From Styela clava (taxonomy: Eukaryota > Chordata > Ascidiacea > Stolidobranchia > Styelidae), in NCBI RefSeq assembly GCF_964204865.1, contig NC_135254.1:16125001-16189000 (forward strand): a stretch of 64,000 nucleotides of DNA, written 5' to 3'. Below are positions 434 through 52,100 of this stretch, piece by piece. The position numbers were made by a program, and so were the translations under genes. How positions within the stretch are numbered: position 1 is the stretch's first letter; every line of letters starts with the position of its first letter. The notes under the pieces were generated by a model. It saw only the letters and a program-made list of their open reading frames with translations, searched no databases and had not been told where the DNA came from.

Positions 434-2640
434 TTTGTTCCGTTCGCTATTGAAGACGTTACTTGCTATCGTTTCGTCAACACTGTTGAGTCTTCCGTGA
501 AACGCTGGTTATATAGAATGGAAGACCGTGCTCAATTAAACATTGACGTACTCGAATATCAAAATATTGTGGGGAGGCAGCCAATTATATTCTATAAAAT
601 AAATTATTTTTCTCGTAATTGGAGCAGGATCGTCATCGCTTCGACGGCCTATCGTTATGTGTGCAGGTGGCAACATTTTTTTGCAACTAGAACATTTTAG
701 AAGATTTTGCCATATCTATCTGATTAAAAATTATATATACATATATTTTATTCAGGTGGCAATATTAATCTACACTGCATTGTAGGCCTGTTGCACATTT
801 TCTTACGTCTAACGTCATACGTATATTTACGATCCAAAATAACCCTCTACGTATTATGCTAATTTACATACAACATTCCAATTAGAAAAAGCGTGTCTCC
901 CTCCAATTTTATATTCATATGAGTTGTTTCTAGTCTGGGAACAGGCGTTTTCTATCACGTAATGCAATTTAGAAAATTCGAATTGAGACAAATAAAAAAA
1001 ACATATATCTATATTTAAAATGTTCAGCGGCTATTATCTCCAAAGCTACAAAAATTAAGAAAAAATAAATGCATTAATATATCTGGGTAACACCATGCAT
1101 TTGTTGAGAAATAATTGTTACAAAACATTTGTTGTAAAACAAGATTATCAGTGGCTTTGTTTACTTTAAAATATCGTCAGGCTAATAATAAAAGTGCGTG
1201 AGTCATTTTTATCGGGTTTGAGTAAAACTTCCCAAAGATATTGTCATGCCATTAAGAGTAAATAATTTTCCATGGTTAAATTTTTTAGGCGTAGCGGGTT
1301 TTCAATTTTTTTGAATGACGCCTGCATATTGCGACATAATGGAGTACTGTGACTTGCGCAAAAATGTGTCTACAACTTGAGAACGTACGCAATTTTGCGT
1401 GACGTGATTAGTTTTCAGCAACATTAGTTTATGGCTTTAGTTTAGGGCTCCGTGAGAGAAACCTAGGGGCTCCGCGAGCTATTCGAGTACTTACTATTAA
1501 AATTGCTAAAATGAAAGATTACTATTCTGAAAAATCATCAAATACGTATTAAACTGCCAACTATAGATAGATTGCAATAGTATTTTCCCGATCTTGGGAT
1601 TTGTCAGATTTGAGTCTTTCAGTTTTCAAGATTATTTTTATCAAGATATAGCCAATACAAAATCCCAAGGTTGTCGTTAGAATCTCAATACAATTTGCAA
1701 TGTACAAATTACCTTGACAGATACGGATATATTTAAAAATCCCTTGTTTGCTGGTATAAATGTGTCTGAATCTGAAATATCTGAATCTGAATCAATGTAA
1801 CCTGTGGTTGCGTCGACTTATATGTATAAAATCATTAACACTCAAAATTACTTCAGCAATCTGCAGATTCAGAAACAATGAAACAAAGTTCTTGTGGACT
1901 ACTGTATATTCTGAACAACGCTGTTATAATAAGATATTAGAAACAATGTCGTTCTGCCCTTATAAGATTCCGGTAATTTGATGAAGTCGTTTGTGGCCGT
2001 CCCCATTAATCATAACTGATTGTGTGGATATGTGATAGATTTCAGGGTTAAACGAATTCGACAAATTTGAAATCTTCTCGCAACACTAAATTCGTCCTTT
2101 CGCAGGGTTTCACTCAATTTATTTAAGATATCACCGTTTAAAAAATCTTAAGATCTGGACGAAATACAGAAGATTTATATTAACTTTTTTCCCAATAAAA
2201 ATCTGATCCATATACTTATCTTATATATCGTCACATACCGAAAAATACCACCAAAGTTTTTGATTTACAGTGGGTTTTTAATCTTTTGTGAGTGTTATCT
2301 TTCGTTTCAGATTTTAGTTTCCATATTATATAATGCGCTTTTCAATCTAGAAATTTGAGCGTCAGATTAACCTCTATATTTTTAGCATGTCGTTGCCGAT
2401 GAATATAATATACTAACTTGTTGTTGACGCTAAACTCACAATTCCGCACGAGTACTGAAAAGTAATTATCGTCGTCCTCGTGGAACAATAGACGCGTATG
2501 CCAAGGACAATTTGTGATTGGGGGAGAATAAACCCCGACATAAAGATGTTTGCGGCCTAAAAACACGTCACACGTTACGAAAACAATCGGCAATATTAAC
2601 AAAATGCAATCTCGCAAGTTATAAGCGTCTTTTTCAGTCT
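434..2640. other. AT-rich intergenic stretch, no gene seen
   Basis: No coding exon, RNA gene or bounded element was recognised. Short open frames here lack any domain signature. A short motif near 1445 (GGGCTCCGTGAGAGAAAC) recurs in altered form near 30605, suggesting old repeat debris. The first few hundred bases should hold the promoter of the DEP gene. Confidence 0.5.
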
Positions 2641-2689
2641 TTCAAAAATATTAGAAGGAAGGGGGTTCGATCCCGAATTTATGGTTTCA

Positions 2690-2885
2690 TTATCTTTGAA
2701 CCCGCGAACATTTGCAGCCTGCACATTTGCACTCGCGGACATTTGAACCCATGTACATTTGCACCCACGGACATTTGAACCCGCATACATTCGCACCCGC
2801 GTACTTTTACACCCACGTACAATTACACCCACAGACATTTGCACCCATGAACATCTATATCCATGAGCATTTGCATTCGTGTTAG
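2690..2885. repeat. 16-bp minisatellite, copy 1
   Basis: About 12 head-to-tail units of a 16-bp motif close to CCCACGGACATTTGAA, each diverged by several bases. The array begins just after GGTTTCATTATCTTTG. The same unit, with a related left boundary, recurs at 28985-29165 (inverted) and 41515-41700, so it is a dispersed family and not a single local expansion. Open reading frames over it are artefacts of the period. Confidence 0.85.
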
Positions 2886-3012
2886 TTCGGTCCCGCGCAA
2901 AGTTTCTCCTCGCATCAATGCCCTTTTTTCCTCGCTGACAATTCCGAACTGTTTCTTTAGGACGTTGCCGCTGCGAATATGACAAGTCCTTTTGCGAAAA
3001 TAAGTTGGAAAC

Positions 3013-3640
3013 ATGGTGCTTACATTATCCAAGACCTCAGGAGAAAACGACTTATTGATCTCCAGAGGCCGCAAATATTGTAAGCGAAATGATAGGGTTT
3101 CAGATGCTATTCATTGGACATGCCGTCAGCTTAGGAAATTTCGATGTAAATCGACTGTTGTTACAATCGGTGAAAATGTAATAAAAGAACTAGGATATCA
3201 CAGTCATTCTGGCTACAGCATTAAGACAGAAGTTGGGATCATTCGTGCAACATTAAAAGAAGCAGCATCAACACCATCAAATACATCGACAAGATATATT
3301 TTAGGTGAAGTATTGAATAACAGATCAGCAGATGTACTCATGCGCTTGCCAAGCAAGTCGACTCTGGAGGCAGATATACGAAGAGTAAGGCGACAGAAAA
3401 ATTGTTTTTAAACGAATTCTACAAGTACTAGCTTCAATATTCCGAGCGAATGTTTAGATATCAGTTTGCATGACACTGGCCCAGAGGATCGTCATCGGAT
3501 AGTTGCTATTGGAGATCGATCACTACTTGCACATCTAGACAAATATATCTAGACAAATATCTTGGCGACGGTACATTTGATGTGGTGCCCAATATTTTCT
3601 TCCAGTTATATACAATTCACTTTAAAGTGAGGGCATCTTA
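3013..3640 (+). pseudogene. FLYWCH / MULE transposase N-terminal remnant
   Basis: An open frame at 3013-3411 carries a FLYWCH-type zinc-finger pattern (a basic segment after LLISRGRKY, then IHWTCRQ, FRCKST and a GYHSHSG histidine pair). A helical region with a DVLMRLPSKSTLEADIRRVRR segment follows. After a frameshift near 3411 the reading continues to a stretch with LGDGTFDVVPNIFFQLYTIH at about 3565-3625, a hallmark of the catalytic core start in Mutator-like transposases. A direct duplication of ATCTAGACAAATAT around 3533-3562 adds an in-frame stop. The rest of the catalytic domain is missing. The MULE superfamily makes ~9-bp target duplications, which matters for the foldback element 2 kb downstream. 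Confidence 0.75.
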
Positions 3641-3749
3641 TCCTCCCTGACGAAAATTTCCCATAAGACTTCATTATTTCACGTTTTCCAAATATGGCAC
3701 AAGATGGCGTCTATGAACTTGTTTAACATTAAGGAAGTTAGTTGATTGC

Positions 3750-5591: not shown

Positions 5592-5600
5592 CCAGTAGTA
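5592..5600. repeat. 9-bp target-site duplication, left
   Basis: CCAGTAGTA, identical to 10107-10115, directly abutting the terminal inverted repeat of the foldback element. Confidence 0.9.
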
Positions 5601-5849
5601 ACCTAGGTAAGGCTAGCGGACACTTCCAGCAGACAGTTACCAATTTTTCCAAATTTGAACCCGCCATGTTCCACGACAGTTGTCGCGAATTCACTTAATT
5701 GCGGCTACATTGATGCAAAAAATTAGACGATTAACCCTTTTAGAAACTAACGACAGGCCTGAAACATAATAAAAAACAAAAATGATTGAAACAACACATT
5801 TTTTCCTCGGTAAAATGAATTATTGCTCAGAAGCTCATTTATCGAAAAA

Positions 5850-6880
5850 ATCTAAAATTTAACTGAGTTGAAGCGTAATTTATGCAAGAAATAATTTTTT
5901 CTCATGCAATTCATTAATACCGGGTATTTGATGAAGATATATGAATCATATATTAAATTTTAAAAAAATTCCACCATGCGGAAAGTTGAGAAATACCCCC
6001 CAATTTAAGGAAAATTATTAGAAAATCGTCAATATAACTCAGTTAAAAGCGTAATTTGTGCAGAAAATAATATTTTCTCATCAAATTCATTAATACAGTG
6101 TATTTGATGGACAAATATAAAATACATATTAAAATTAAAAAATAATCCACCGTGCGGAAAGTAGGGAAATTCCCTTCAATTGAAGAAAAAAATATAAGAA
6201 ATCGTCAATTTGACTCAGTTAAAGCGTAATTTAGGTAAGAAGGAATTTTTTCTCATTTAATTCATTAATGCAGTGAGTTTGGTGGACAAATATAAAATAC
6301 ATATTAAAATTTAAAAAAAATCCACCGTGAGGAAAGTAGGGAAATTCCCCTCAATTGAAGAAAAAAATATAAGAAATGGTCAATTTGACTCAGTTAAAGC
6401 GTAATTTAGGTAAGAAGGAATTTTTTCTCATCCAATTCATTAATGCAGTGTGTTTGGGGGACAAATATAAAATACATATTGAAATTTAAAAAAAATCCAC
6501 CGTGCGGAAAGTAGGAAAATCCCCCCAAATGAAGAAAAAAATATAGGAAATAGTCAATTTGACTCAGTTAAAGCGTAATTTAGGTAAGAAGGAATGTTTT
6601 CTCATTCAATTCATTAATGCGGTGTATTTGGTGGACAAATATAAAATACATATTGAAATTTAAAAAAATCCACCGTGCGGAAAGTAGGGAAATTCCCCCC
6701 AATTGAAGAAAAAAATATAAGAATCCGTCAATTTAACTCAGTTAAAGCGTAATTTAGGTAAGAAAGAATGTTTTCTCATCCAATTCATTAATGCAGTTTG
6801 TTTGGTGGACAAATATAAAATACATATTAAAATTTTAAAAATATCCACCATGCGGAAAGTGGGGAAATTCGGTACTCTCG
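5850..6880. repeat. Left arm tandem array, ~175-bp unit, ~6 copies
   Basis: Each unit holds a CCACCGTGCGGAAAGTAGGG box, an AACTCAGTTAAAGCGTAATT-type box and a TTCATTAATGCAGTG box. The first box occurs near 5974, 6148, 6324, 6499, 6672 and 6846, giving a period of about 174-176 bp. Confidence 0.9.
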
Positions 6881-7189
6881 AAATATGGACACAAAGATGA
6901 CGCACAACCTGAATATAAAAGGTGTACCAGTATAGGTTCAGATTTAGAATCTAGTCTAGATTGTACGCTTTCGGGAGCGCAGGAAATAACCCATTTATTT
7001 AAAAAATATTTATCTCCATCAAATACACTGTTATAATAAATTGGATGAGAAAAAAATATTTTTTGCATAAATGGGTTATTTCCTGCGCTCCCGAAAGCGT
7101 ACAATCTAGACTAGATTCTAAATCTGAACCTATCCTGGGACACCTTTTATATTCAGGTTGTGCGTCATCTTTGTGTCCATATTTCGAGA

Positions 7190-9830
7190 GAACCGAATTT
7201 CCCTACTTTCCGCATGGTGGATTTTTTTAAATTTTAATATGTATTTTATATTTGTTCACAAAACACACTGCATTAATGAATTGGATGAGAAAAAATTCCT
7301 TCTTACCTAAATTACGCTTTAACTGAGTCAAATTGACGATTTCTTATATTTTTTTTTTCAATTGAGGGGAATTTCCCTACTTTCCGCACGGTGGATTATT
7401 TTTAAATTTCAATATGTATTTTATATTTGTCCACCAAATACACTGTATTAATGAATTGGATGAGAAAATATTATTTCCTGCATAAATTACGCTTTTAACT
7501 GAGTTATATTGACGATTTCCTAAAAATTTTCCTTAAATTGGGGGGAATTTCCCTACTTTCCGCATGGTGGATTTTTTTTAAATTTTAATATGTATTTTAT
7601 ATTTGTCCACCAAACACACTGCATTAATGAATTGGATGAAAAAAAATTCCTTCTTACCTAAACTACGCTTTAACTGAGTCAAATTGACGATTTCTTAAAT
7701 TTTTCTCTTCAATTGAGGGGAATTTGCCTACTTTCCGCAAGGTGGATTTTTTTCAAATTTTAATATATATTTCATATATCTTCATCGAATACACTGTATT
7801 AATAAATTGAATGAGAAAAAAATATTTTTTGCATAAATGGGTTATTTCCTGCGCTCCCGAAAGCGTACAATCTAGACTAGATTCTAAATCTGAACCTATC
7901 CTGGTACACCTTTTATATTCAGGTTGTGCGTCATCTTTGTATCCATATTTCGAGGGAACCGAATTTCCCTACTTTCCGCATGGTGGATTTTTTTTAAATT
8001 TCAATATGTATTTTATATTTGTCCACAAAACACACTGCATTAATGAATTGGATGAGAAAACATTCCTTCTTACCTAAATTACGCTTTAACTGAGTTAAAT
8101 TGACGGATTCTTATATTTTTTTTTCTTCAATTGGGGGGAATTTCTCTACTTTCCGCACGGTGGAATTTTTTTTTAATTTTGATATGTATTTTATGTTTGT
8201 CCACCAAACACACTGCATCAATGAATTGGATGAGAAAACATTACTTCTTACCTAAATTACGCTTTAACAGAGTTAAATTGACGATTTCTTATATTTTTTT
8301 CTTTAATTGGGGGGAATTTCCCTACTTTCCGCATGGTGAATATTTTTTAAATTTAAATATGTATTTTATATTTGTCCACCGAACGCACTGCATTAATGAA
8401 TTGTATGAGAAAAAATTCCTTCTTACCTAAATTACGCTTTAACTGAGTCAAATTGACGATTTCTTATATATTTTTTTTAATTGAGGGGAATTTCCCTACT
8501 TTCCGCAAGGTGGATTTTTTTTAAATTTTAATATGTATTTTATATTTGACTACCAAACACACTACATTAATGAATTGGATGAGAAAAAATTCTTTCTTAC
8601 CTAAATTACGCTTTAACTGGGTCAAATTGATGATTTCTTATATTTTTTTCTTTAATTGGGGGGAATTTCCCTACTTTCCGCATGGTGAATTTTTTTTAAA
8701 TTTCAATATGTATTTTATTTTTTTCCACCGAACACACTGCATAATGAATTGGATGAGAAAAAATTCCTTCTTACATAAATTACGCTTTAACTGAGTTAAA
8801 TAGACGATTTCCTAAATATTTTCATCAAATTGAGGGGAATTTCCCTACATTCCGCATAGTGGATTTTTTTTAAATTTCAATTTGTATTTAATATTTGTCC
8901 ACCAAACACACTGCATTAATGAATTGGATGAGAAAAAATTCCTTGTTACCTAAATTACGCTTTAACTGAGTGAAATAGACGATTTGTTAAATATTTTCAT
9001 CAAATTGGAGGGAATTTCCCTACTTTCCGCACGGCGGATTTTTTTTAAATTTTAATATGTATTTTATATTCGTCCAACAAACACACTGCATTAATGAATT
9101 CGATGAGAAAAAAATTCCTTCTTACCTAAATTACGAAGTAACTGAGTCAAATTGACGATTTCTTATATTTTTTTCTTAAATTGGGGGGAATTTCCCTACT
9201 TTCCGCAGGGTGGTTTTTTTTTAAATTTTAATATGTATTTTATATTTGTCCACCAAACACACTGCATTAATGAATTGTATGGGAAAAAATTCCTTCTTAC
9301 CTAAATTACGCTTTAACTGAGTCAAATTGACGATTTCTTTTTTTTTTCTTTAATTGAGGGGAATTTCCCTACTTTCCTCATGGTGGATTTTTTTTAAATT
9401 TCAATATATATTTTATATTTGACCACCAAACACACTGCATTAATGAATTGGATGAGAAAAAATTCCTTCTTACCTAAATTACGCTTTAACTGAGTCAAAT
9501 TGACGATTTCTTATATTTTTTTCTTCAATTAGGGGGATTTCCCTACTTTCCGCACGGTGGATTTTTTTCAAATTTTAATAGGTATTTTATATTTGTCCAC
9601 CAAATAAACTGCATTAATGAATTGGATGAGAAAATATTATTTACTGCATAAATTACGCTTTTAACTGAGTTAGTTTGACGATTTCTTAAAAAAATTTCCT
9701 TAATTTGGGGGGTATTTCCCAACTTTCCGCATGGTGGAATTTTTTTTAAATTTAATATATGTTTATATATCTTCATCAAATACACGGTATTAATGAATTG
9801 CATGAGAAAAAATTATTTCTTGCATAAATT
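7190..9830. repeat. Right arm tandem array, ~175-bp unit, ~15 copies, inverted
   Basis: This is the reverse-oriented array of the same unit. The CCCTACTTTCCGCAYGGTGG-type box recurs near 7192, 7370, 7548, 7727, 7965, 8142, 8318, 8493, 8667, 8840, 9016, 9193, 9363, 9540 and 9715. The larger step between 7727 and 7965 is due to a ~130-bp insert (about 7835-7965) identical to the one at the palindrome centre. The arm lengths are unequal (6 vs 15 units), which implies array expansion or contraction after insertion. Confidence 0.9.
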
Positions 9831-10106
9831 ACGCTTCAACTCAGTTAAATTTTAGATTTTTTCGATAAATGAGCTTCTGAGCAATAATTCATTTTACCGA
9901 GGAAAAAATGTGTTGTTTCAATCATTTTTGTTTTTTATTATGTTTCAGGCCTGTCGTTAGTTTCTAAAAGGGTTAATCGTCTAATTTTTTGCATCAATGT
10001 AGCCGCAATTAAGTGAATTCGCGACAACTGTCGTGGAACATGGCGGGTTCGAATTTGGAAAAATTGGTAACTGTCCGCTGGAAGTGTCCGCTAGCTTTAC
10101 CTAGGT

Positions 10107-10115
10107 CCAGTAGTA
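10107..10115. repeat. 9-bp target-site duplication, right
   Basis: CCAGTAGTA, the partner of 5592-5600. Confidence 0.9.
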
Positions 10116-10944: not shown

Positions 10945-13444
10945 TTAATCGGATGAGAAGACAGCAGAATGGTAAAGGGAAAGCATGATTTTTTTGTATT
11001 TAAATTTAAAGGTTTCATAAGATGAATGACGAAGGCTTTGACCTATGCTATTCCAAATTACAACTCCCCTGTATTTCAAGAAGTTTTGGCATTTGCTTGA
11101 TGAAAATCGAGGGACAAATAAATTGGATTTAGTCGAAGAGCGTGTATTATGCTCATGCACGTTACTAAGCATGACGAAATAGTCAGCAAAAGCTGGGGGC
11201 AATTGGTTGTTGTTAAATTGGTGCATAAGTTTAGAAATCTCTAGTTTATAGATGTCTGACAATTTTAAAACCCTGGTCTTGTGGTATAGGATATTCAGGT
11301 TAGAACGAATAGATACCCTACAGAGAATTCTGACAGCCCTATTTTGTAAAATCTCTAATTTATTCAAGTTTGTATTGGTAGCGGAACCCCATGTAGCTGA
11401 GACATGGTGGATATGAGATTGAAAAAGAGCTAAATATACTGTTCGCAGAGTCAAGTCGTTTACATAATGCCTTAACTTCCCTAGGATCCCGACTGATCTT
11501 GACAATTTCTTACGCAATTCATTAGTATGAAAGTTCCATTTTAATTGATTGTCAATAGTGAGGCCAAGGTATTTATAAGAGTGAACAATTTCAAGAGGGA
11601 TACCTGTAATTTTGATTGAGATGTTCGCATGTCTGGCTAGAGATTTGTGGCCGAATAACATGACTTTGGATTTTTGTATATTCACGGTAAGTTTATTGGA
11701 AATCATCCAATCATATACTTTATTCATTTCAGTGTTCACCTTGTCCTGGAGAATACTCGGATCTTTTGCACTGTAGAGCAGGCAAGCATCATCAGCAAAC
11801 AATTTGCTCAAAAAATTGGAGTAGTTTGACAGATCATTTATGTAAATTAAGAAACCAAGAGGACCTAACACACTACCTTGAGGAATTCCGTGATGAATGG
11901 GCAACATCGGAGACTGCTGAGAATCCACCTCCACATATTGGAATCGACCCGAAAGGTAATTGCTTAATAGTTTGCCTGTAGCACCTCGAAAGCCATAGTG
12001 TCTCAGTTTTTGGGAAAGAATACTATGGTTGACAGTGTCAAAGGCTTTTTTTAAATTGAGAAAAATACAGCAGACAAATTCGCCTTTGTCAATTTTATCG
12101 TAAATGAATGATGTTAGATCTAAAATAGCATGATTGGTGGAATTATTGGTTTGAAATACAAATTGACGTTTATTGATCATGTTGAATTTTGTACAAAAAT
12201 TGATCAATCTGCTATGTAGTAGTTTTTCTAAGATAATGGCAATAGAGGAGAGGATTGAGATTGGTCGGTAATTTGAAGGATCATTATGCTTACCACTTGA
12301 AAATTGGTTTCACTCTAGCAACTTTTAAAGAGGAAGGGAAAATACCCAATTTGAATGAAAAATTGAAAAAATGACTCAGCACTGGTGATAGGATATTAGC
12401 AACTATTTTTAGGAAGTGTGATAGAATACCATCAGGCCCAATTGCTTTTCCATTTTTTAGATTCAATATCATTTGAAGGACCTCTGCAGGAGTAGTAACT
12501 TCAAGAAAGAAAGAGCTTTGCAGAGGAGCACCCAAGAAGTACGCGAATGATTTTGAGCTATGAGGTAGTTTATCTGCAAGCTTCTTCCCCACTGTTGAGA
12601 AAAATTTATTGAATTCGCTAGCCACCATGACAGGGTCTCTGACTGTAGTACCATTATCGAGTTTCAATTCTGAGATGGGGGTATCATCTCTGGACTTGAT
12701 TTTAATAATTTCATTTATAGTCTTCCAAGTGTGTTTTACATCACCTCGGTTGTTTTTGAGGATTTTATGGTAATACAATTGTTTCGATTTTCTCTGCAAA
12801 TGATTTAAGATATTTTTATATTTTTTAAAGTAAAGACGCTCAAGTAAATTTCCTTTTAAAAAATATTTTTTGAACATTTGATTTTTGTGTTTGATGGACT
12901 TGTGAATCTCCCTAGTTATCCAAGGCTTCAAGTACAATTTATTTTCTCGACGTGATGCAAGTCGAAGTGGGGCATGTTTGTTGATTAACCATTTCAATTG
13001 GCCAAGAAAAGAATCGAAAGATAAATTAAAATTTTCTTTACAGAGAGCGGTATCAATGTAGTTGTTACACATTGACTCGACCTCAGATCTGAAAGAGTCG
13101 CTACAAAATTTTGTCAAATCTCGCTTCATCCGAGTTTTTGTCTTGGAAGAAACATTTAAACCAGAGATTGTACAAATTACAGGAAAATGGTCAGTAATAT
13201 CACTAAGCAAAATAAATGATGAAGAGACATTACCTATGTTATTTGTATAGATATGATCTATGAGGGTGTGGGTGGATGATGTGACTCTAGTTGGTTTTGT
13301 AATCACAGGCAATACGAAATAGGACATAAGCATGTCCAAATATTTGGCAGTGGGATTGTCATGGGTGTAATGTAGTGTAGTGATCCTTGCCACTGTTTGC
13401 GGACAGCAATTCGTTGATGGTGAGTGATGATGTGCCGTTATCAA
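10945..13444 (-). pseudogene. Non-LTR retrotransposon (Jockey/CR1-like), 5'-truncated
   Basis: The upstream part (13444-12290) starts inside the AP-type endonuclease: its last motif LIDHIYTNN...ITDHFPV is present, but the catalytic N-terminus is missing. It continues into the reverse transcriptase up to VKPIF. A single frameshift near 12296 passes reading to the second part (12207-10945 and bases just upstream). That part carries FLNLKKAFDTVNH, GIPQGSVLGPL and the FADD catalytic box, followed by the KLTVN..KS..MLFG and YLGL segments of the thumb. The C-terminal tail includes WNSI, as in Jockey/CR1-group elements. Truncation at ~13450 fits aborted reverse transcription. Apart from the one frameshift, the copy is quite well preserved, suggesting recent activity of the family. 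Confidence 0.88.
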
Positions 13445-13529
13445 TTTCTTTAAATATTCATAAGCTCCCTCATTTCAATGGAAAGCAGATGACAAACTAC
13501 TGTTATTGGTAGGCCTAGGCTACTTGCAG

Positions 13530-32471: not shown

Positions 32472-32581
32472 CTTCCGAAGCGCCAGCTTCAGACCCCCCC
32501 CCCCCCCCTTTGGAAATTCCTGGCTACGCCACTGCCCTATGGGGTTATCCCCAGACACCTGGAATTTACAACTAAAATTTT

Positions 32582-34135
32582 TTGGATATGGTGGAATACA
32601 CCGCATCCCTAGATACAGTATTGAGAGATCATCTTGATGCCGCAACTGTTTCGAAAGGGACATCTAAGGATATCCAAAATGATTTGCTCGACTCAATGTG
32701 TAAAATTTATTTACAACATTTGGCTCTGGAAATTGAGAATTGCCAGTTCCATTCGATTCAGTCTGACGAGACAACTGACATCACGTGCGTTTCCCAACTG
32801 GCTGTGATTTTTCGGTTTGTGAAAGATGGTAAACCTACCGAGAGATTTCACAGCTTTGTACCAATCGTTGATCGCACGGCTTGCGGGATATCGGCTGTAC
32901 TGGAAGAAGTGTTACAGGCTTACAACGCGAAGTCAAAATTGATAGCTCAAACTTATGACGGCGCGGCAGTCATGAGTGAGTCGAAACATGGTGTTCAAGT
33001 TTATATAAAAGAAGATTTTCCTCATGCGCATTTTTTACATTGTTATGCACACCAATTTAACCTCGTTATTAAAAATATGTGTCTTGATACCCCTCTCGTC
33101 CGTATATTTTTTGCAAATGTTTCGGGGTTTTCTTCATTTTTTTCCGTTTCGCCGAAGCGCTCTGACCTCCTTCGCCAGATATGTAGCCGCCGTCTCCCAG
33201 CTTGTGCACCAACACGTTGGAACTTCCAATAACGCGTGGTGCAGGGCGTGTCCGAAATTAGGTCTGAGCTCATTGAGTGTTTCAATGGCATTCAGAGCTC
33301 TCCGGTTTGGGACGAACGCTCTGTGAGGGAGGCGGCAGGTCTAAAGCGTCTGCTAGAAGATGGTGAGTTTTCATTTTTTCTCGCTTTTCTCTCCACGATA
33401 TTCTATCACGTGGATGTATTATACGGCGCATTGCAGTCAAGGCTAATGGATGGAGCGTCTGTGCAGTCGTGTATTTCAGACTTCTGCGATGCTGTATCTC
33501 GTATCCGGGAAACAATAAAATACGACGACACATGGAGTGCTTCTTTACGCCGCGGGCAAACAACGCAGCGTTTGATTTTGTCTGCAAAGGAATGCTGTGA
33601 CATTCTGGTGAATCAAATAGGCGATCGTCTGCGCACTAAACACCTTGCCGCGTTCTCTTTGATGAACCCCAAAAATTTTTCAAAATTTGCACGTCAATTT
33701 CCCATCCATTTGTTGGCTACTGTCTCCAAATTTTACCCCATGATAAACGTGGGTAAATTGGAAAATGAATTGCGATGTATATACACCAATCAAACTTTTT
33801 TGAACATCACATCAACTTGCGCGCTCTCTATGGGTTCCTCATAGATAACACTCTAGTAACTACTTTTGCGGCGTCTGCAAAATTTCTGGACATCATTTTG
33901 ACGACGCCTATTTCTTCCGCCGACGCAGAGCAAACATTCCAGCACGCTGAAGCGTATTAAAACGTATCTCAGAAACACAATGAAGCAAGATAGATTAAAT
34001 TCCTTGGCTGTTTTATCCATTCACAGAGACGTTATTTCTGGGATGCATGACTTTAATCAGCGCGTTATTGAGCATTTTGCTTCCAAGAAACCGCGGCGTG
34101 TTGCATATATATATGTTCAAGCAGTAGAAGTCTAG
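32582..34135 (+). pseudogene. hAT transposase (DUF4371 / ZMYM-like), broken
   Basis: The first part (32582-33229) has SIQSDETTDITCVSQLA, an RNase-H-type catalytic start, then AQTYDGAAVMS and FLHCYAHQFNLVI, the usual C/H-A-H-x-L-N-L-V box of hAT enzymes. An in-frame TAA at 33230 interrupts it just after RWNFQ. The second part (33233-33843) continues to the insertion region. A frameshift near 33835 leads to TTPISSADAEQTF and a C-terminal RIKTYLRNTM...LAVLSIHRD block in a third frame, the hAT dimerisation domain. The N-terminal zinc finger is missing. One stop and at least two frame changes make it inactive. Confidence 0.85.
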
Positions 34136-49130: not shown

Positions 49131-52100
49131 TTAGACGAAATGCTCGATCTGCGATTCTACGTACCGCTGCTCTTTCATATCACTCTGTTCTGCAGTCATG
49201 TGTTGTCCAGCGTAAAAAGCTTCCGCTTCTTCAAGCGTCTCTAACATTTTCATTCCCGTAGTTTCAGGAAAAGTAAGAGACAATATACCGGCTATTACAC
49301 CAAACGCGCCAAAGATACTGTTTGGTAGCCACGTCACCCATACCTTAAAATAAATATTTCTTGCTGATTTCCATTTTAAATGAAAAAAACGATTATATGA
49401 AATATTATTTTATGTTGTTGACAATTAATATATTACCTGGGTAGCTATAACGAACGGTGTCAGAATACCACCGATTCTTGCTGCCATTGAACCAATGCCG
49501 ATTCCATTTGACCTGGAATATAAATTTGTAATAACACTGCACCAGCAAAAAGTGAAAGAATTTGTAAAATGATTCTTACATCGCAATTAACTACGCATTT
49601 TTACTATACTCATTAGGTTAACGTTGAGAATTCTTTGTGGGTATATTAGGAAAAATAGTTATAACAAGTATATCCGGAAGAAATTCATCAATACCTTTTC
49701 ATTTGTCGTAATAGAGTCATATTCAATTTCAAAAGCGGTCTAATAAATAATAGCAGTTACCCAAAAGACTTTTATTTGGTAATTTATTGTTTATGTTCAT
49801 CTTTCTCTAACAAATTTCAGCAAAGAAAGAAGAAGAAGTATATTAGGTATATATTGCTTACCTTACCACTGTAGGAAATAGTTCAGTCGTAAAATTATAA
49901 ATGATTGCGTAGGACCCAGAAATTCCCATCTTACCCAAAAATGCGAATGCCACTCCAAGAGTTATAAGAGCTAAAAAGCAAAAGAATAAATAAAAATACA
50001 TCAACAACATTGGAGATGCGACGATGGTGACACAGGAACAGTAATTAATTAATATGTATTTCAATTAAAAGTAGATGAATGTATCAATATTAGGAAATAA
50101 AATAAGTCCGAAGAAGCTTAGTGCTTGCACTAACAGAATACTAAGGACAGTCGGACAGCCTTTACAGAGGAGTGTTATCTCATTGTTATTTATTGTCAAC
50201 CACTCGACATACAATCATATATATATGCCAATAAGTAAAAGCTGTTCATTCACATTTAATTATGCAAAACTTATTTTAAATCTACGACGTAGGCGAAGTT
50301 CTACTATTAGTCTCTAAATTTTGAAACTTGCGCTACTCAGAATAAATAGTACCTTGATCATCGCCTGCGTATTCATTTACAATAGTGCTGGCTATCAATG
50401 TGGTTCCTGATACCAACAACATAATTGCAAGGAGTACTTTTCTGCCGACAAAATCCATAAATATAATACAAAGGCCGTAGCTGATGATTTCCATACATCC
50501 GCCTAAAAAAAGAAAATTTTATTTCGAATTTCTTTAGCTCTTTAAAGATACCATCCACATTTTTAGTCAGTTAGAATGCTAGTATAGACTGCTTACCTAT
50601 GACATTGTTGATAAATATATTTCCACTCAACGAACCGACATTTAATGAAAGTCCATAGTATACGAGACTGTTGACAAACCTGTTAAAAATAAATCGTAGA
50701 ATCACCCTACGAATAAAAGATATTTCGTTGTCCCATAGTGGCTATAAATTTGGAAGAAGAATGAAACATAAAAGCGAAAATTGTACTTACCAGTTGAACA
50801 TAACTTTGAAGGTCGTTAGTCGAATTCCAGGAGCTCGAAATAAATCTGACGAAGAATAAGATCTGGTTTCGTTATTCTCATCCTCCTGCGATTTTTCCTT
50901 TCAAAAAAGAAAAGTGGAGCAATTTTTGACACTTGAAAAAATATGAGATCGTTCGACGGTGTTATTATATATAGTCATACCACAAAATGATTGAATAAAG
51001 AACAAAAACATCGCAGAAAACCAATGTAAAAATACGTCTGCGAAATGATGGAATGAAAAAAAAAACATCGCAGAAAACCAATGTATAAAATACGTGTGCA
51101 AAATGATGGAATAAAAAAAATATCGCAGAAAACCAATGTATATAATACGTCTGCAGAATGATGAAAAAAAAAACATCGCAAAAACCCGGAGTAAAAATGC
51201 GTCTGATGCCTGTTCTCAATCGGTCCGTCTCATTAAATACGGCAGTAAAGTGAATTGGCATGAAAACCATACACCGACGAAATGTTCGTAAATCAAAATT
51301 CGTCAATAGTAATACCAAAGTTGTTATGTAAAGTGAACTCGCTTGAACGGGGTAGTAAATGTAAACTTGGCATGGGTTCGATTTAATGTACAATGACCTA
51401 TGAAAAACGCTTTACACAAAGACATACAGATTAATTAATTCATTCTTACAACGTTCTCATTTCCCAGTTTTTCTGCCTCAAGCCATATGTCTTCCGTCAA
51501 GTCGACTTTGTTGAACTTCGCCATTGTCATTGAAATCTTATGATTAAGATAATATTGGATTCATTGTAAACAAATATTTTACCAATACGTTAGGTAAATT
51601 TGAAATCTGACAATATTGAACTAATCCTAAAATAGCCAATAACTTTGATTATAGAAAATGTTATAAGATGTTCTGCATATTCATTACTGATGAGTTGATT
51701 GATTGCTTCTACACCAAATCTTAATGTAACAGATGAACGAAAAAATATGATTTTTAAGTGACAAAGAAAACTTTACTTTTTTAGCTTGTTTGTCTTTTCC
51801 CACACTGAACAGCCACCTTGGTGATTCTGGAATCAAAATCAAGAAAATCCCGAAAGGTAAAGATAGTACGATGCAAGCCCACTAAATAAAAAATACAAGA
51901 GAACAAAAATTAATTGTCATATGAATGAAGCATTTTGTGCCTCTCCAATGTTCCGTGCCTTTTTCTGCATATCATACAATACTTTATATAAGATTTTACC
52001 TGCATATCACGCCAGTCCCTCCATCCATAAGCGACGCCAGACAAGAGCATGTAGCCAACAGCAAAACTGACTTGAAAGCTGATTCCGACGAGTGTTCTCC

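What the first reader, a model, noticed from the sequence alone, without database searches (positions are those of the whole stretch)
5592..10115. 4.5-kb foldback transposon with tandem-repeat arms and a perfect 9-bp TSD
Sequence shows CCAGTAGTA on both sides, mirror-image ends ACCTAGGTAARGCTAGCGG, ~250 bp of unique TIR and then opposed arrays of a ~175-bp unit (about 6 against 15). The 9-bp TSD points to the Mutator superfamily, in which foldback forms with satellite-like arms are rarely reported in animals. The copy may be young, as the TSD is exact and the outer TIRs differ by few bases.
Basis: partly seen in the sequence, partly recalled or inferred. Interest (0 to 1): 0.85.

Follow-up and report, generated by a model that had tools for sequence, protein, structure and literature searches.

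The report
Foldback jumping-gene family, probably Mutator-type
The window holds one intact copy of a mobile DNA family whose two ends carry long mirror-image stacks of a 175-letter repeat; it resembles known foldback transposons of flies, mosquitoes and nematodes, and the enzyme that moves it was not found.

Summary
Window 5601-10106 is a 4,506-bp element with an exact 9-bp target duplication; its ends match at 340 of 345 positions, and opposed arrays of a 175-bp unit (5.8 against 14.5 copies) meet almost without a core. It belongs to a family: 51 exact terminal 17-mers, 0 for the reversed control. Of 23 pairs read at both ends, 17 have an exact 9-bp duplication, 5 an exact 8-bp one, 1 differs by one base. 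This mixture and the composite arms fit animal Mutator-like elements (Muta1, Tm1, Tetris). Membership is inferred: no transposase was found in any copy, and none of 82 MULE-domain hits lies within 17 kb of 64 family ends. Copies are non-autonomous with several cores: 3.9 kb, about 1.5 kb, or none (the window copy and one other). A MITE-like spacer sits in both arms. It is a new member of a known kind; 'rarely reported in animals' is overstated.

The parts
5592..5600 (.). left target-site duplication CCAGTAGTA
10107..10115 (.). right target-site duplication CCAGTAGTA
5601..5855 (+). left terminal inverted repeat, unique part; begins with the 8-bp palindrome ACCTAGGT
   Evidence: first 250 bp 98.8% identical to the right end
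9852..10106 (-). right terminal inverted repeat, unique part
5856..6870 (+). left arm, 5.8 copies of the 175-bp unit
6871..6990 (+). left copy of the MITE-like spacer (about 120 bp; limits approximate)
7017..7048 (.). 32-base loop at which the two arms meet; no core sequence in this copy
7073..7194 (-). right spacer copy 1 (limits approximate)
7195..7838 (-). right arm, inner block, 3.7 units
7839..7960 (-). right spacer copy 2 (limits approximate)
7961..9851 (-). right arm, outer block, 10.8 units

Best explanation
This is a core-less, non-autonomous copy of a foldback DNA transposon family, most likely moved in trans by a Mutator-like (MULE) transposase. Shown: defined ends, 8- or 9-bp duplication of the target, dispersed copies at different sites, shared ends with different interiors, no long reading frame of its own in any copy read. 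Inferred: the transposase binds the ~250-bp end and cuts beside the terminal palindrome ACCTAGGT, and the staggered target cut gives 8 or 9 bp. The 175-bp arrays may carry extra binding sites, as reported for Galileo and suggested for Tetris. Arms lengthen and shorten by unequal exchange or slippage between units. A MITE-like sequence that got into one array was copied into both arms. Loss of the core by recombination or foldback repair between opposed arms leaves pure palindromes such as the window copy.
For: Exact TSDs in 22 of 23 pairs: 17 of 9 bp, 5 of 8 bp. 14 of 14 fully read copies have opposed 175-bp arrays inside shared ends, of unequal length. No frame of 150 aa or more in those 14; the long frames met in a fifteenth, the 18-kb copy C2:790831 (1013, 971 and 335 aa), I judge by eye to be LINE frames inserted in its core. 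Different cores under one end type: the 3.9-kb core, whole or in part, at 21 loci including the query at 94-100% (a lower bound), a ~1.5-kb core, whole or in part, in 3 copies, none in the window copy and in C16:18266286, of which only the middle 1.4 kb was read. Unit 23-mer: 100 of the 100 listed places (of 510 in all) lie inside end-bounded members, + in left arms and - in right arms (compared by eye). TSDs of 8 or 9 bp, composite ends with a palindromic terminal motif and mixed interiors are described for the active MULE Muta1 (PMC5225508, passages). The genome holds MULE transposases (82 hits at E<=0.001).
Against: No MULE domain was found with these ends: the 82 hits at E<=0.001 lie at least 17.7 kb from all 64 ends compared (51 exact, 13 with one mismatch), and the nearest of all is on the outer side; the 41 weaker hits (E up to 10) lie at least 27 kb away. 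One weak hit (C9:14163434, E 0.07) is 5.5 kb from a 2-mismatch site, on its outer side. In 30 of 82 MULE loci read with about 1.5 kb on each side, no family end or unit was found; the only matches were part of the spacer (L030) and a short stretch shared by one C18 core and L048. TSD length alone does not exclude Merlin (8-9 bp, recalled) or, for the 8-bp cases, hAT or P-type elements. The core piece resembling a Ulp1 protease is weak (Pfam E 0.067, below cut-off).
Confidence: 0.75

Rival explanations
1. The same anatomy, but moved by a transposase of another superfamily with 8-9 bp duplications (Merlin, hAT, P-type as in Galileo, or KDZ/Zisupton).
For: 5 of 23 pairs have 8 bp. Galileo shows that P-type elements can build foldback arms with ~210-bp tandem units (PMC3573991, passages). 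No MULE gene was found with these ends.
Against: 17 of 23 have exactly 9 bp, while hAT is 8 (recalled) and Galileo 7. KDZ gave 0 hits, but its control was silent too, so that says little. P, hAT and Merlin profiles were not searched.
Confidence: 0.18
2. The 3.9-kb core is the wreck of the family's own former gene, a lineage carrying a Ulp1-like protease, rather than captured host DNA.
For: A short frame with a Ulp1-like Cys-Gly motif (motif recalled) stands at 19 loci at 96-100% and at C6:8510216 at 90%. A piece of the same frame (residues 6-46, short of the Cys-Gly motif, 46% alike, one stop) stands at C3:3918745, about 0.9 kb inside a diverged family end at C3:3919815. Plant MULEs with Ulp1 domains are known (recalled).
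Against: Pfam score 13.4 against a cut-off of 20.7. The same stretch has one 74% relative at C13:4767016-4768802 without family ends or arrays in the 9.5 kb read, which also fits capture of host DNA. No transposase piece was recognised beside it.
Confidence: 0.35
3. Assembly artefact at a palindrome.
For: Long inverted arrays are hard to assemble; arm lengths here rest on the assembly alone.
Against: The two arms differ in length, 14 of 14 read copies show the same architecture at other sites, and TSDs are exact in 22 of 23 pairs.
Confidence: 0.01
4. The arms are ordinary satellite DNA that a simple transposon happened to carry, and free arrays exist elsewhere.
For: Unit size (175 bp) is satellite-like; Tetris units seeded satellites in Drosophila virilis (PMC4079207, passages).
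Against: 100 of 100 listed unit places (of 510) lie inside end-bounded members. The other 410 were not listed; 264 of the 510 fall in the 14 read copies, so part of the 510 remains unplaced.
Confidence: 0.05

Closest known systems
Tetris (Drosophila virilis; PMC4079207: passages and one section seen)
   Same: Foldback ends with an external unique domain, then ~220-bp tandem units, variable middle domain without coding capacity, 8-10 bp TSDs, no autonomous copy found, assigned to Mutator by TSD length.
   Different: Arms here reach about 6 kb (against TIRs up to 1,735 bp), unit 175 bp, arrays interrupted by a MITE-like spacer, no free satellite arrays seen in the part of the hits that was listed.
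Muta1 and its derivatives (Aedes aegypti MULE; PMC5225508: passages seen)
   Same: TSDs of either 8 or 9 bp, palindromic terminal motif, subterminal tandem repeats, non-autonomous derivatives with different interiors; called a type 2 foldback element.
   Different: Muta1 has 145-bp ends with a 12-bp repeat, a 10-bp imperfect terminal palindrome and a known transposase.
Tm1 (root-knot nematodes; PMC3169594: passages and part 1 of the discussion seen)
   Same: Composite ends of variable length, mostly 9-bp TSDs (8-10), non-autonomous classes with unrelated interiors.
   Different: ~14-bp repeat motif; one element encodes a Phantom-type MULE transposase.
Galileo (Drosophila; PMC3573991: passages seen)
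   Same: Long ends expanded by ~210-bp tandem units, core-less two-TIR copies, arms that vary independently.
   Different: P superfamily, 7-bp TSD.
Drosophila FB/NOF and sea-urchin TU elements (recalled; a sea-urchin foldback is only mentioned in a passage of PMC4079207)
   Same: Foldback arms with repeats, TSDs of 8-9 bp (recalled).
   Different: Not compared by sequence here.
Rehavkus (PMC6446971: passages seen)
   Same: 9-bp TSD, ends of 26-400 bp, minisatellite beside one end.
   Different: Encodes a transposase with a PHD finger; minisatellite before the 3' TIR.

Membership tests
Cut-and-paste TIR DNA transposon | terminal inverted repeats flanked by a short target duplication of a fixed length class | tested here: met
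   22 of 23 pairs exact 8 or 9 bp
Foldback (FB-like) elements | long composite inverted ends with internal tandem repeats and variable or no core | tested here: met
   14 of 14 fully read copies; core-less: the window copy and C16:18266286 (middle 1.4 kb read)
Mutator (MULE) superfamily | TSD of 8-11 bp, mostly 9 | tested here: met
   17 of 23 are 9 bp, 5 of 23 are 8 bp
Mutator (MULE) superfamily | long terminal inverted repeats | tested here: met
   about 250-bp unique ends plus arrays
Mutator (MULE) superfamily | MULE DDE transposase in the autonomous member | tested here: inconclusive
   82 MULE hits, the nearest 17.7 kb from 64 family ends and outside; 41 weaker hits at least 27 kb away. 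Contigs C7, C11, C12 and C15 appear in none of the own-genome listings, so part of the genome may not be held
P superfamily (Galileo type) | 7-8 bp TSD and THAP/P transposase | tested here: inconclusive
   7-bp TSD in none of 23, 8 bp in 5; transposase not searched
KDZ/Zisupton | KDZ transposase | tested here: inconclusive
   0 hits, but the control genomes were silent too
Rehavkus | transposase with PHD finger | not tested
   no profile searched

The most novel reading that the evidence does not exclude
A foldback family in which the arms, not the core, are the unit of evolution. A MITE-like sequence trapped at one phase of one array was copied, junctions nearly intact, into both mirror-image arms, and opposed arms repeatedly delete the core to give self-complementary elements that remain mobile. 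Arms would then act as a shared, recombining repeat pool that outlives any core or transposase gene.
Probability: 0.35. Interest if true: 0.55.

Novelty: new member of a known kind. Interest (0 to 1): 0.35.

Why it matters
With 23 paired copies, 22 of them with exact target duplications, forms from 13-kb cored to core-less, a spacer that marks copying between arms, and diverged relatives with related ends, this family is a better-stocked case than Tetris (three structurally complete copies) for asking how foldback arms arise and spread. It does not change the classification of transposons.

Tried and rejected
Autonomous copy: the longest pair (18 kb, C2:790831-808833) proved to be a cored member with frames of 1013, 971 and 335 aa inserted, by eye a LINE (no profile was run on them). 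The pair C8:705963-714474, chosen for 2-mismatch ends, gave no arms and no recognisable gene in its middle 3 kb and may be a chance pair: at two mismatches 97 hits stood against 50 in the control. MULE family M1 has another end sequence. KDZ: nothing rang, control silent.

Young arms by conversion within a copy: rejected. Of 429 units, 303 have their nearest neighbour in another copy, 106 in the same arm and 20 in the opposite arm of the same copy; mean identity is 0.873 same arm, 0.870 opposite arm, 0.868 other copies. The unit shows no clear derivation from the end.

Host: no COX1 in the held genome (control rang in 8 of 14), so the species was left open. 'Animal' is inferred from a BTB-BACK-Kelch gene and a CGI-121 gene in the window. 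No Rfam family reached its threshold in the window.

Empty site: the window's two flanks, joined at one duplication, were sent twice and not answered; the last genome search went to the unit pattern instead, so the empty-site test was not done.

Full report
What is there. [quoted passage not shown] The ends are complementary at 340 of 345 positions. Inside a unique end of about 250 bp lie opposed arrays of a 175-bp unit, 5.8 on the left and 14.5 on the right. The arms meet at a 32-base loop.

A family. The end has 40 scored matches in the 376.6-Mb genome (71 candidates, 40 scored), 93-99% identical to the window's left end apart from itself. The terminal 17-mer occurs 51 times, control 0. Fourteen paired copies including the window's were read in full, 4.5 to 13.8 kb long, and the ends of nine more pairs were read. 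Target duplications: 17 of 23 exact 9 bp, 5 of 23 exact 8 bp, 1 of 23 (C14:19383712) differing by one base in a T run. In three of the 17 (C2:790831, C3:2308681, C10:19255945) the scripts reported nothing because the terminus is mutated; they were read from flanks printed. Two random window 9-mers agree at most about 2 times in 10,000 (an upper bound that includes drawing the same site twice).

Anatomy across copies. 14 of 14 read copies have left arms of forward units and right arms of reverse units, of unequal length, the longest about 6 kb. No reading frame of 150 aa or more occurs in them. Cores fall into types. A 3.9-kb core stands, whole or in part, at 21 loci at 94-100% including the query itself (40 of 1052 candidates scored, so a lower bound). 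A ~1.5-kb core stands, whole or in part, in 3 copies and contains an abundant ~460-bp repeat. The window copy and C16:18266286 have none; of the latter only the middle 1.4 kb was read, and its arms meet at a different junction, which suggests at least two losses of the core. The 18-kb copy carries LINE-like frames in its core. Two loci on C8 and C9 match the 3.9-kb core with identical scores and coordinates while their cores end about 1.4 and 5.1 kb from the right end, which suggests arm length changing around a nearly constant core; their sequences were not compared.

The spacer. A sequence starting GGTACTCTCGAAATATGG was found 52 times in the 14 copies with up to 6 mismatches in a 52-base pattern, 24 forward and 28 reverse, following the arm in which it lies; both arms carry it in 11 of 14 copies. 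These are lower bounds, since one search shows a few further gaps of the same size. Its 5' junction is nearly the same throughout. Part of it is 74-84% like a short inverted repeat beside a MULE gene (L030), so I read it as a trapped MITE-like sequence. In 8 of the 10 read copies with the 3.9-kb core one spacer runs directly into the core, so it may have begun at the array-core border. Presence in both arms needs copying between arms at some time, or origin before the two ends became alike. But units are hardly more alike within a copy than between copies, so such exchange is neither frequent nor recent.

Age. The two ends of one copy are 94.8-99.6% alike in the 14 read copies, 98.8% in the window copy. 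Among these the window copy's left end is nearest to C2:16173099 (96.4%) and C10:22044532 (95.6%), both with the 1.5-kb core. Units average about 87%. The arms are thus older than the recent spread of ends and cores.

What moves it. Inferred: a Mutator-like transposase. For: 9-bp duplications with an 8-bp minority, long composite ends, a terminal palindrome ACCTAGGT, mixed interiors; these are described for the MULE Muta1, and most of them for Tm1 and Tetris (passages). Against: no transposase in the family. The 82 MULE hits of this genome lie at least 17.7 kb from 64 family ends, and 41 weaker ones at least 27 kb; against 33 further 2-mismatch sites and 15 places the nearest on the inner side is 23.3 kb away, at a site of chance quality. 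Diverged relatives of the end exist: of 31 matches to the C3 end, the others are 65-94% alike over 50-212 bases, including members of this family at 65-66%. C3:3919815 carries a related end followed by no 175-bp array within the 376 element bases read, and a piece of the core's Ulp1-like frame lies about 0.9 kb inside it (46% over 41 residues, one stop, not covering the Cys-Gly motif). In 200 bases at its left side no end and no duplication were found. This is the best place to look for the parent.

The core's origin. A stretch of the 3.9-kb core (1803-3711) is 74-76% like a single locus at C13:4767016-4768802 that shows no family ends or arrays in the 9.5 kb read; another stretch (978-1614) is about 73% like a separate dispersed repeat. 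Capture of host DNA and decay of the family's own genes both remain possible; the Ulp1-like piece is below Pfam's cut-off.

Placement and novelty. It is a foldback element by tested features and probably a Mutator-type one by indirect features. Tetris is nearly the same kind of thing. 

Noticed in passing
window 10945-13474 (-): Reverse-transcriptase frames of a LINE in two adjoining frames just right of the element (RVT_1 E 9.9e-27 for 10948-12309), by eye similar to the LINE in the 18-kb family copy.
   Followed up: no
window 32576-33844 (+): Two adjoining frames; the first matches DUF4371 (E 1.8e-10), by recall a hAT-transposase-related domain; the second was not tested.
   Followed up: no
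window 2695-2875 and 50983-51186: Short tandem arrays with 16/32/48-bp and 55-bp periods.
   Followed up: no
L035 (C14:13916081): A MULE-domain locus enclosed by inverted repeats of at least 1.39 kb that are 99.6% alike and hold short internal tandem duplications: another long-armed MULE in the same genome; no family end or unit was found in it.
   Followed up: partly
L014:2977-3437 (core of C2:16173099): An abundant ~460-bp repeat (3355 first-look candidates, 40 scored) sits inside the 1.5-kb core.
   Followed up: partly
L081 (C6:4525041-4526058): A dispersed palindromic repeat of about 1 kb whose arms are about 75-77% like part of the 3.9-kb core.
   Followed up: partly
own-genome listings: Contigs C7, C11, C12 and C15 appear in none of them, so part of the genome may not be held.
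   Followed up: no
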